Positions 26,501-32,500 of a stretch of 64,000 bases of DNA are shown one piece after another. The notes beneath the pieces were generated by a model, which made no database searches, was not told where the DNA came from, and was given only the letters and a program-made list of their open reading frames with translations. The DNA comes from Mimachlamys varia. Its lineage: Eukaryota > Mollusca > Bivalvia > Pectinida > Pectinidae. The stretch is taken from assembly GCA_947623455.1 (NCBI GenBank), contig OX392541.1:5346701-5410700 (forward strand). Direction: 5' to 3'. A program made the translations under genes and the position numbers. Every line of letters begins with the position of its first letter. Position 1 is the first letter of the stretch.

Positions 26501-29500
26501 CCCCTTATCCAAGGATGGGGTCAGCCCCATCATTTGTATAAATTGGAGTCCCAGCCACCACTAAAATATGAATGTTTCACATTGCTCAGACCCAGAGAAG
26601 AAGTCCTTAAATGGACCCTTTTGACCCTGCCTCTCCAGCCCCTGGGGGGTCTGCCATATCATTTGTATAAATTTGAGTCCAAGCCACTTAGGGATGCTTC
26701 CAACCAAATTGAATATATTCCGATCAGTGGTTAAGAAGAAGAAGTTGATTGTTGACAGACGGACAGACGACGTACACCATGGTATGGCATATAAGCTCAC
26801 CTTGGTCCTTTGGACCTGGTGAGCTAACAAATCCAAGATGGCTGTCTGTTGGACATATTGTTTATTGCACAACTAGGCACAGAGGGGAACCTACATATGA
26901 AATCAGAGAATGATCCATCCAACACTTCTCAAGAAATAGTGGTAATAAACTATTTCTAACAAATCCAAGATGGCCGCATGTCGGCCATATTGTTTACTGG
27001 ATCTGTCTGAAAATGAACTATGCACAACTATAGGCACCAAGGGAAACCTACATATGAAATTGAGAATGATGCATCCAGTACTTCTCAAGAAATAGCGGTA
27101 ACAAGAATTGTTTAAGGACGGACAACAGACCATGGAAGCCAGACTTTTTGAATAATTAACCCACTATCTGATGATCTAAATATAGTAGTAACAAAATTTT
27201 TTTAAGGATCGACGGACCACAGATGATGGGCAATTTGGATAGCCCAAAATGGCTAAAAGACCATTATTTGACTTTTGACAAAATCTGTATAATAAATGTT
27301 TTTGAAAAACATGAATTTGAAGAAAATCTTTCTCTGAAGTGAAGGCAGCCAAACATTGTGAATTCAAACAACAAGAGCACTGCAAGCCGAGGCATGATAC
27401 GCCGTTGTACCCTATCGCAAGTATAGTGGTATGGAAACACAAACAAGATCACCGCAAGCGGAGACATGATACGCCGTCGTACCCTATCGCAAGTATAGTG
27501 GTATGGAAACACAAACAAGATCACAGCGAGCGGAGACATGATACGCCGTCGTACCCTATTGTAAGTATAATGGTATGGAAACACAAACAAGATCACCGCG
27601 AGCGGAGACATGATACGCCGTCATACCCTATTGTAAGTATAATGGTATGGAAACACAAACAAGATCACCGCGAGCGGAGACATGATACGCCGTCATACCC
27701 TATCGCAGGTATAATGGTATGGAAACACAAACAAATTCACCGCGAGCGGAGACATGATACGCCGTCGTACCCTATCGTAAGTATAATGGTATGGGAACAC
27801 AAACAAGATCACCGCGAGCGGAGACATGATACGCAGTCGTACCCTATCGGAAGTATAGTGGTATGGAAACACAAACAAGATCACCGCGAGCGGAGACATG
27901 ATACGCCGTCGTACCCTATCGGAAGTATAGTGGTATGGAAACACAAACAAGATCACCGCGAGCAGAGACATGATACGCAGTCGTACCCTATCGGAAGTAT
28001 AATGGTATGGAAACACAAACAAATTCACCGCGAGCGGAGACATGATACGCCGTCGTACCCTATCGGAAGTATAATGGCATGGAAACACAAACAAGATCAC
28101 TGCGAGCGGAGACATGATACGCCGTCGTACCCTATCGGAAGTATAGCGGTATGGAAACACAAACAAGATCACCGCGAGCGGAGACGTGATACGTCCGTCA
28201 TACCCTATCGGAAGTATAGTGGTATGGAAACACAAACAAGATCACCGCGAGCGGAGACATGATACGTCCGTCATACCCTATCGGAAGTCTAGTGGTATGG
28301 AAACACAAACAAATCTAAGTTCTGACACTTTCTACATAATATCCGAAGTCCCAAATGGCTATAACTCTAGTAAACATTGTCGAATCGAACTGCCATTCAA
28401 GAAAACAACTTCATGTCAAAATGATTAAGCTTAACAAGTTAAAGATAATGGCTGAAAACCACTGGAGAAGATCTCTGCACAAAACAACAGTTTACGACAG
28501 AAAGGCATTTTCTACATAATGCCTATATATAACTAAGAAATACTGTTGAAACAACTCAACTAAACCCATAATAATTATATGTTAAATATCATAGTTTTTC
28601 CAAGTACCATACTAAAGTTTAGAGGAATTGAAGAAAACGCAAAAAAAGTTCTGACATTTTCTACATAATGCACGAAATTGTATCCCAAAGGGCCATAACT
28701 CTAGTGATTATTATCGAAACAAACTGTCGTTCAGGAAAACACAACTTCATGCCATGGTGACCTTTGACCTGAACCTACAACACTTCATTCATAACATCAC
28801 CAGGAAATAGCTGCTTGACTTCTGACCTCGAACACTTTTGATTATATGTAATAAAAGAAATATTTCCACAAGTTTCTCCGCGTACTTCTTGTTTTCCTCC
28901 CACAATTGGACATGCTGTAGGCTTAAATCCTTGCTAATTTGGTCTGTAACAGTTCCACGGTTATCGTAATATAAATTTTATCTAAGTGAACTATTTACGG
29001 CTTACCTTTGCTCCCATGACAGCTACTTCAGCAGTGGGCCAGGCATAGTTGGTGTCCCCGCGTAAGTGTTTAGAACTCATCACGTCGTAGGCCCCACCAT
29101 AAGCCTGTCACATAGAAACATCAAGCTGGTCATTATATATACTTGTATATAATGTATTTCTTCCTCCACAATATATATTGTCACTGAATCTAGAATGAAC
29201 AACAATAAATTATTTATCCTCAGGATCAAGAAGTGATCTCATCTCTGACTTAAGTTTGGAATAAGCCAATCACAAATAGCATCATGAAAACTTATGTCAT
29301 ATGTGATTTTCTAAGCAATATCTTAGGTCTAAGATTGCTTTAAGATCCCAGGGCCAGTTTCTTTGTTTTTATAATTTGTGAGCAGAATAGGCTTTTTTTA
29401 CCAATTAAAAGCATTGAAATTGTTTAAGACCAAAAATGGTGTACAAACCTTTCTTGTTATCACAGTAATCTTAGGCACAGTAGCTTCAGCATAGGCATAC

Positions 29501-32500
29501 AGTAGCTTAGCACCATGTCGAATAATCCCTCCGTACTCCTGGGATGTACCTAAAATATGTATAACATACGTACATCATACAGTAGCTTAGCACCATGTCG
29601 AATAATCCCTCCGTACTCCTGGGATGTACCTAAAATATGTATAACATACGTACATCATACAGTAGCTTAGCACCATGTCGAATAATCCCTCCGTACTCCT
29701 GGGATGTACCTAAAATATGTATAACATTACATACATCATACAGTAGCTTAGCACCATGTCGAATAATCCCTCCGTACTCCTGGGATGTACCTAAAATATG
29801 TATAACATTACATACATCATACAGTAGCTTAGCACCATGTCAGATAATATAATCCCTCCGTACTCCTGGGATGTACCTAAAATATGTATAACATACATCA
29901 TACAGTAGCTTTTTTAAGCACCGTGACAGATCATACTCCCATACTCCTGGGATGTACCTAAAATATATATAACATACATCATACAGTAGCTTAGCACCAT
30001 GTCGGATAATATAATCCCTCCGTACTCCTGGGATGTACCTAAAATATGTATAACATTACATACATCATACAGTAGCTTAGCACCATGTCGAATAATCCCT
30101 CCGTACTCCTGGGATGTACCTAAAATATGTATAACATTACATACATCATACAGTAGCTTAGCACCATGTCGAATAATCTCTCCGTACTCCTGGGATGTAC
30201 CTAAAATATGTATAACATTACATACATCATACAGTAGCTTAGCACCATGTCGAATAATCTCTCCGTACTCCTGGGATGTACCTAAAATATGTATAACATT
30301 ACATACATCATACAGTAGCTTAGCACCATGTCGAATAATCCCTCCGTACTCCTGGGATGTACCTAAAATATGTATAACATACGTACATCATACAGTAGCT
30401 TAGCACCATGTCGAATAATCCCTCCGTACTCCTGGGATGTACCTAAAATATGTATAACATACGTACATCATACAGTAGCTTAGCACCATGTCGAATAATC
30501 CCTCCGTACTCCTGGGATGTACCTAAAATATGTATAACATACGTACATCATACCGTAGCTTAGCACCATGACAGATAATCCCTCCGTACTCCTGGGATGT
30601 ACCTAAAATATGTATAACATTACATACATCATACAGTAGCTTAGCACCATGTCAAATAATCCCTCCGTACTCCTGGGATGTACCTAAAATATGTATAACA
30701 TACGTACATCATACCGTAGCTTAGCACCATGACAGATAATCCCTCCGTACTCCTGGGATGTACCTAAAATATGTATAACATACATCATACAGTAGCTTTT
30801 TTAAGCACCGTGACAGATCATACTCCCATACTCCTGGGATGTACCTAAAATATGTATAACATACGTACATCATACAGTAGCTTAGCACCGTGACAGATAA
30901 TCCCTCCGTACTCCTGGGATGTACCTAAAATATGTATAACGTACATCATACAGTAGCTTAGCACCATGACAGATAATCCCTCCATACTCCTGGGATGTAC
31001 CTAAAATATGTATAACATACATCATACAGTAGCTTAGCACCGTGACAGATAATCCCTCCGTACTCCTGGGATGTACCTAAAATATGTATAACATACATCA
31101 TACAGTAGCTTAGCACCATGACAGATAATCCCTCCATACTCCTGGGATGTACCTAAAATATGTATAACATACGTACATCATACAGTAGCTTAGCACCATA
31201 TCGAATAATCCCTCCGTACTCCTGGGATGTACCTAAAATATGTATAACATACGTACATCATACAGTAGCTTAGCACCATGACAGATAATCCCTCCGTACT
31301 CCTGGGATGTACCTAAAATATGTATAACATACATCATACAGTAGCTTAGCACCATGACAGATAATCCCTCCGTACTCCTGGGATGTACCTAAAATATGTA
31401 TAACATACGTACATCATACAGTAGCTTAGCACCATGTCGAATAATCCCTCCGTACTCCTGGGATGTACCTAAAATATGTATAACATTACATACATCATAC
31501 AGTAGCTTAGCACCATGTCGGATAATATAATCCCTCCGTACTCCTGGGATGTACCTAAAATATGTATAACATACATCATACAGTAGCTTTTTTAAGCACC
31601 GTGACAGATCATACTCCCATACTCCTGGGATGTACCTAAAATATATATAACATACATCATACAGTAGCTTAGCACCATGACAGATAATCCCTCCATACTC
31701 CTGGGATGTACCTAAAATATGTATAACATACATCATACAGTAGCTTAGCACCATGTCAGATAATCCCTCCGTACTCCTGGGATGTACCTAAAATATATAT
31801 AACATACATCATACAGTAGCTTAGCACCATGTCGGATAATCCCTCCGTACTCCTGGGATGTACCTAAAATATGTATAACATTACATACATCATGCAGTAG
31901 CTTAGCACCATGTCGGATAAAATAATCCCTCCGTACTCCTGGGATGTACCTAAAATATATATAACATACGTACATCATACAGTAGCTTAGCACCATGTCG
32001 GATAATATAATCCCTCCGTACTCCTGGGATGTACCTAAAATATGTATAACATACGTACATCATACAGTAGCTTAGCACCATGACAGATAATCCCTCCGTA
32101 CTCCTGGGATGTACCTAAAATATGTATAACATACGTACATCATACAGTAGCTTAGCACCATGTCAGATAATCCCTCCGTACTCCTGGGATGTACCTAAAA
32201 TATGTATAACATACGTACATCATACAGTAGCTTAGCACCATGACAGATAATCTCTCCATATGACCAAGCATCAGTGTTCCTTTATGACCGGGAATAACCC
32301 CACTCAAAAGCCTGGGAGAGAGAATTAGGCATTGACATTGATAAAGATTTTTTATTACACTGGATTAGGGAGGGCTTTGATATCATCAACCCATTGTCTA
32401 GTCCCAGTCCAGCAAATGCCCAAAATCATAGTCCAGTCTCCCCTTCTAGCGAGATTGACAACGGGTGGTACATCCCAGTGACAAACAAACCATGCATTGT

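What the first reader, a model, noticed from the sequence alone, without database searches (positions are those of the whole stretch)
29449..32260. A PCCB exon start with its splice acceptor has become a 34-copy tandem array
Seen: the 80-bp unit equals the first 54 nt of PCCB exon 6 (codons for [17 protein letters not shown]) plus 26 nt of the preceding intron with the TATTTTAG acceptor. The real exon is the last member in transcript order, so about 33 near-identical acceptors precede the one that must be used. Known: acceptor choice usually favours proximity and exon definition. Inference: the decoys lack the exon's second half and normal donor, so exon definition (or the short 344-bp downstream intron) may rescue splicing. 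Minisatellite growth from a coding exon of a housekeeping enzyme is unusual.
Basis: partly seen in the sequence, partly recalled or inferred. Interest (0 to 1): 0.92.

Follow-up and report, generated by a model that had tools for sequence, protein, structure and literature searches.

The report
Thirty-three decoy splice sites in PCCB
In what looks like an intact gene for a basic metabolic enzyme, the start of one exon together with its splice signal has been copied 33 extra times in a row, so the cell must end up at the last of 34 nearly identical splice sites, and the sequence suggests a way in which wrong choices could repair themselves.

Summary
Observation confirmed. The minus strand carries the 3' half of an intact-looking PCCB gene: nine exons, 306 aa, matching residues 233-539 of the PDB mitochondrial PCCB chain. 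An 80-bp array (29496-32257, 34.5 copies) is made of the first 54 nt of one exon plus about 26 nt of intron with its acceptor. There are 34 AG|GTACATCC acceptors; the real one (29549) is last in transcript order. The core -9..+16 is identical in 34 of 34, and 3 of 33 decoys equal the real site over -80..+54. The adjacent sequence cannot tell them apart. My reading: the upstream exon ends CAG and every copy starts GTACAT, so joining to any decoy rebuilds a donor-like CAG|GTACAT (34 of 34). Each unit is a 76-86-nt GT...AG segment, and re-splicing to the real acceptor restores the exact mRNA. That resembles recursive splicing and tandem-duplication intron gain, at array scale. It is inferred: no RNA, relatives or reads could be examined.

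The parts
29496..32257 (-). 80-bp tandem array: 33 complete decoy units plus the 54-nt part of the real exon and a truncated distal copy
29449..29549 (-). real PCCB exon (sixth in the window in transcript order), 101 nt; acceptor ATATTTTAG|GTACATCC, donor AAAG|GTTTGT
29550..29575 (-). 26-nt intron part of the unit next to the real exon, with the acceptor that must finally be used
29629..32194 (-). first exonic bases of the 33 decoy acceptors (29629, 29709, 29790 ... 32194)
   Evidence: one search lists all positions
40857..40964 (-). upstream PCCB exon; donor ACCAG|GTACGAGG, so its last three bases CAG precede GTACAT after splicing to any copy
29550..40856 (-). intron of 11,307 nt, 95% tandem repeats (80-bp and 36-bp arrays)
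29006..29104 (-). next PCCB exon, 344 nt downstream
24134..24230 (-). PCCB exon
23396..23517 (-). last PCCB exon with stop codon
48876..48999 (-). PCCB exon followed by a GC donor (GCAG|GCAAGT)
50114..50195 (-). PCCB exon
55335..55455 (-). PCCB exon
58623..58689 (-). first PCCB exon found in the window (5' part of the gene not found here)

Best explanation
SHOWN: a segment crossing an intron-exon boundary of PCCB has grown into a minisatellite, so that 33 copies of the acceptor plus the first 54-59 nt of exon precede the real exon. SHOWN: every copy begins with AG|GTACAT and the upstream exon ends in CAG, so the product of splicing to any copy carries CAG|GTACAT at the junction. INFERRED: this regenerated donor is used. 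A splice to a decoy is then an intermediate and not an end: the next splice removes one or more whole units (each a 76-86-nt GT...AG segment) until the real exon, which alone continues into its own second half, donor and next exon, is joined. Any path through the array that ends at the real acceptor gives the same mRNA, so array length is nearly neutral for the message. INFERRED: the array grew by ordinary minisatellite turnover (slippage or unequal exchange) in a genome region rich in such arrays.
For: 34 of 34 junction 9-mers are CAGGTACAT, and re-splicing to the real acceptor gives the native mRNA. Recalled-matrix donor score 5.95, within the range of the eight native donors (5.43-11.06) and above three of them (the donors after eA 5.55, e6 5.43 and eD-type GC 6.02 is above it; so exactly two native donors, eA and e6, score lower). 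Of the eight exon junctions of this gene part, this one has the best rebuilt donor (next 4.36), and it is one of 2 of 913 9-mers of the spliced coding sequence that reach 5.94. The acceptor and rebuilt-donor core -9..+16 is identical in 34 of 34 copies, while 31 of 91 alignment columns elsewhere vary; a 25-nt invariant run has P about 0.015 if variable blocks fall at random. Without re-splicing, equal choice among 34 sites would give 2.9% correct mRNA; with a re-splicing chance of 0.9 per wrong step the same toy model gives 73%. Boundary-crossing tandem duplication that makes a new intron is published for a potato gene (PMC4974935, abstract and passages seen).
Against: No RNA evidence. The rebuilt donor lacks G at +5, and in the precursor (TAG|GTACAT) it scores only 4.37; 6.2% of all GTs on the minus strand score as high, and 2.0% reach the 5.95 of the rebuilt donor. 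The acceptor is poor: pyrimidine fraction 0.59, joint lowest of nine exons, and this is the only one of nine exons without a yTnAy branch motif in the last 60 nt. The recalled ratchet consensus of flies has a long pyrimidine tract and GTAAGT, which this lacks. The conserved core test is post hoc, and the copies are not independent. Three other exons of the same gene part also begin with GT, so an AG|GT start is not rare in itself. No excess RNA structure.
Confidence: 0.45

Rival explanations
1. Decoys are mostly ignored. The real acceptor wins directly because it is the one nearest to a true donor and heads a complete 101-nt exon followed by a short 344-nt intron (exon or intron definition); the array is inert intron.
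For: Exon of normal size and short downstream intron; the decoy acceptors are weak, so recognition may need the whole exon; the most distal decoys would make exons of up to 2,746 nt.
Against: The nearest decoys would make exons of only 181, 261 and 342 nt with the same donor, and one of them (decoy 32) is identical to the real site over -80..+54, so neither acceptor strength nor lack of a donor separates them.
Confidence: 0.33
2. The array is costly: many transcripts use decoys or micro-exons, carry a premature stop and are destroyed, so array length lowers PCCB output.
For: 33 of 33 read-through uses and 33 of 33 single micro-exon uses give a premature stop; 0 of 5,456 triples of micro-exons keep the frame open.
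Against: The gene part looks intact and conserved, and no decoy has lost its AG, which might be expected if decoys were harmful.
Confidence: 0.14
3. Copy number or the array itself is an assembly error.
For: Long near-identical arrays are error-prone; no reads or second assembly could be examined.
Against: 22 distinct unit types among 33, with different lengths, and several other long arrays in the same window. Neither excludes a wrong copy number.
Confidence: 0.08

Closest known systems
Intron gain by a tandem duplication that crosses an intron-exon boundary: potato RdRp gene (Ma, Lan and Niu 2016, PMC4974935; abstract and passages seen)
   Same: The duplicated segment spans the end of an intron and the start of the next exon; the former exonic piece of the upstream copy becomes intron and gives the donor, and the acceptor signals are inherited.
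   Different: One duplication there, confirmed by RNA reads; 33 extra copies here, no RNA evidence; here the GT stands at the very first base of the copied exon, so the mRNA would be unchanged.
[quoted passage not shown] seen only as described in PMC4974935) and two fission yeast genes with 24-nt repeats (PMC3629103, passages seen)
   Same: Tandem copies of AG|GT supply GT and AG of removable segments without altering the peptide; the fission yeast repeats are multi-copy.
   Different: There the source is wholly exonic; here it is an existing acceptor with exon start. In the fission yeast passages the core is AGGC, and few units are involved.
Recursive splicing at ratchet points (zero-length exons; fly and vertebrate long introns; recalled, searches failed)
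   Same: AG|GT sites that rebuild a donor after a first splice, inside a long intron.
   Different: Ratchet points known to me are single, spaced by kilobases and have strong consensus; here 33 copies at 76-86-nt spacing, weak consensus, derived from the target exon itself.

Membership tests
Minisatellite | head-to-tail tandem units of about 10-100 bp with variant copies | tested here: met
   TRF period 80, 34.5 copies, 91% matches; 22 unit types of 33
Functional PCCB gene (not a pseudogene) | open frame, splice signals and conserved protein | tested here: met
   nine exons, 306 aa with terminal stop; 557 bits to the PCCB chain in the PDB; PF01039 409 bits. Only the 3' half was tested
Recursive splice sites (ratchet points) | AG|GT at zero distance, rebuilding a donor after the first splice | tested here: met
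   CAGGTACAT in 34 of 34 junctions
Recursive splice sites (ratchet points) | strong pyrimidine tract and strong donor consensus | tested here: not met
   pyrimidine fraction 0.59; precursor donor score 4.37
Recursive splice sites (ratchet points) | stepwise splicing seen in RNA (intermediates, lariats) | not testable with these tools
   no RNA data
Intron gain by tandem duplication (Rogers type) | tandem copies whose repeated AG and GT bound removable segments | tested here: met
   33 units of 76-86 nt from GT to AG
Intron gain by tandem duplication (Rogers type) | a new intron shown by RNA and absent in relatives | not testable with these tools
   no RNA and no relatives' DNA; the genome search unreachable

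The most novel reading that the evidence does not exclude
A natural serial recursive-splicing array: up to 33 zero-length exons of 76-86-nt period, made from the target exon's own start, through which the spliceosome hops by any route to the real exon, so that a growing minisatellite across a splice site of an essential enzyme is invisible in the mRNA. Such arrays should then survive only at exons whose first bases rebuild a donor.
Probability: 0.25. Interest if true: 0.85.

Novelty: new variant of a known kind. Interest (0 to 1): 0.62.

Why it matters
How the spliceosome picks one acceptor among equals is usually studied with two or a few competing sites. Here one intron offers 34, three of the decoys identical to the real site for 134 nt, in a conserved metabolic gene. 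Either exon context alone discriminates at an extreme level, or splicing errors correct themselves by re-splicing. RNA from one tissue would decide, and the variant bases of the units could label the route in intermediates. It also links minisatellite growth to the birth of introns by tandem duplication.

Tried and rejected
Pseudogene: rejected for the part in the window. An intact exon copy elsewhere in the window: rejected, the 3' 47 nt of the exon occur once. RNA structure around the acceptor: an inverted repeat AUGUAC...GUACAU exists, but four folded stretches have z-scores 0.47, -0.60, 0.60 and -0.43, so it is not used. Decoys as coding exons: rejected, they carry 5-nt insertions, stops and frame changes. 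A gradient of similarity towards the real exon: Spearman -0.31, P 0.077; identical neighbouring units 3 against 1.13 in shuffles, P 0.083; neither is significant. Conservation of the splice core: P about 0.015, post hoc, kept only as a hint. The script prints '32 of 33' for premature stops because it compared residue numbers only; the offsets it lists (29-446 nt) all lie inside the lengthened exons, so the count is 33 of 33. Unit word in viral contigs: 0 matches; Rfam: 0 matches. Literature: of the paper searches only one search was answered (4 papers). I therefore cannot say that such an array is unpublished.

Full report
What is there. The minus strand of the window holds the 3' half of a PCCB gene (propionyl-CoA carboxylase beta chain). 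A recalled human PCCB used as tblastn query finds nine exons covering residues 231-539. With exact splice sites they join to 306 codons and a stop. The translation matches PDB PCCB chains at 557 bits over 233-539 (7ybu_C) and Pfam Carboxyl_trans at 409 bits. The part for residues before about 232 was not found in the window, so the integrity of the 5' half is untested.

The array. TRF gives 29496-32257, period 80, 34.5 copies, 91% matches. In transcript direction each unit is the first 54 nt (or 59 nt) of the exon at 29449-29549 followed by 22, 26 or 27 nt of intron ending in TATTTTAG. There are 34 exact AG|GTACATCC sites on the minus strand of the window; the real one, 29549, is the last. The second half of the exon (47 nt) exists once. 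The distal end is a truncated copy that stops inside exon-derived sequence and then runs into unrelated sequence. The units fall into 22 types among 33. In the alignment of 33 units 31 of 91 columns vary, but the 25 nt from -9 to +16 around the splice point do not, and the real site shares them (34 of 34). Random placing of the variable blocks gives a run that long with P about 0.015; this is post hoc and the copies are not independent.

Why the real site cannot be told by local sequence. Decoys 22, 23 and 32 are identical to the real site from -80 to +54. Upstream of the real acceptor there is only the preceding decoy, so its branch point must lie in repeat sequence. It is the only one of nine exons without a yTnAy motif in the last 60 nt; the one relaxed candidate apart from the acceptor itself is CTAA with its A at -38, in what is exon-derived sequence of the neighbouring decoy. 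CTAAG lies within 60 nt upstream of 31 of 34 acceptors. That these are branch points is inference.

What a wrong choice would cost. If a decoy is joined and the transcript is then read through to the real donor, the lengthened exon is 181 nt (nearest) to 2,746 nt (farthest), and in 33 of 33 cases the frame meets a stop inside it, 29-446 nt after the junction. If a decoy is used as a micro-exon with its own GTACGT or GTATGT (56 nt in 25 cases, 61 nt in 8), 33 of 33 give a premature stop, and 0 of 5,456 triples restore an open frame.

The proposed way out. The upstream exon (40857-40964) ends ACCAG, its own donor being CAG|GTACGA. Since every copy starts GTACAT, the product of joining to any of the 34 sites carries CAG|GTACAT (34 of 34). 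On a recalled, human-like donor matrix this scores 5.95; the eight native donors of the gene part score 5.43, 5.55, 6.02, 6.06, 6.50, 7.85, 7.95 and 11.06, so it is like the weaker native ones. Among the eight exon junctions it is the best rebuilt donor (others 4.36, 0.73, -0.37 and four negative ones without GT), and it is one of only 2 of 913 9-mers in the spliced sequence at or above 5.94. Splicing from this junction to a later AG removes whole units of 76-86 nt, and a last step to 29549 gives exactly the native mRNA. In a toy model with equal choice among the remaining sites, the yield of correct mRNA is 2.9% without re-splicing, 19% with a re-splicing chance of 0.5 and 73% with 0.9. The mechanism is thus possible and sufficient on paper; that it runs is inferred.

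Against it. The rebuilt donor lacks G at +5; 2.0% of all GTs on the minus strand score as high, and in the precursor the site scores 4.37, reached by 6.2%. The acceptor's pyrimidine fraction is 0.59, joint lowest of nine. Three other exons of the gene part also begin with GT, so rank 1 of 8 is weak support. Folding shows no excess structure. The simplest rival, that the spliceosome reaches the real exon directly because only there a full exon and short intron follow, remains open.

Setting. Twenty tandem arrays cover 53% of the window; the introns on both sides of the upstream exon are 94% and 95% tandem repeats. The upstream exon itself lies 19 nt from a 46-bp array of about 153 copies, and the CTGAC motif 22 nt before its acceptor lies inside that array. 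So minisatellites impinge on splice signals twice in this gene, but only the 80-bp array contains exon sequence.

Comparison with the known. The two-copy version of this event is published: in a potato RdRp gene a tandem duplication across an intron-exon boundary made a new intron (PMC4974935; abstract and passages). The AGGT duplication model and the fission yeast cases with 24-nt repeats are close kin. Recursive splicing is recalled; the searches on it failed. I therefore file the array as a new variant of a known kind, a minisatellite born from an intron-exon boundary, that may work like a series of ratchet points. Absence from print could not be tested.

Noticed in passing
40984-48006: 46-bp array of about 153 copies ends 19 nt from the acceptor of the PCCB exon 40857-40964. 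GGCAG occurs 146 times and the exact acceptor-like string CTGACTTTATC[AT]GGCAG 73 times on the minus strand of the array; the CTGAC 22 nt before the real acceptor lies in the array. It could be a second set of decoys, without AG|GT.
   Followed up: partly
32658-40653: 36-bp array of about 222 copies fills most of the same intron as the 80-bp array and reads open over 1,600 codons on both strands by its period.
   Followed up: no
48870-48876: The PCCB exon 48876-48999 is followed by a GC donor (GCAG|GCAAGT).
   Followed up: no
19123-20098 (+): Transposase remains: Pfam HTH_Tnp_4 (19123-19722) and DDE_Tnp_4 (19667-20098).
   Followed up: no
32298-32630 (+): A 111-codon open stretch just beyond the array's distal end reads to me like a reverse-transcriptase piece; Pfam gave no family at 1e-3.
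   Followed up: partly
1-3776; 14257-16088; 51937-54573; 60843-62222: Further long arrays with 20-, 13-, 28- and 61-bp units.
   Followed up: no
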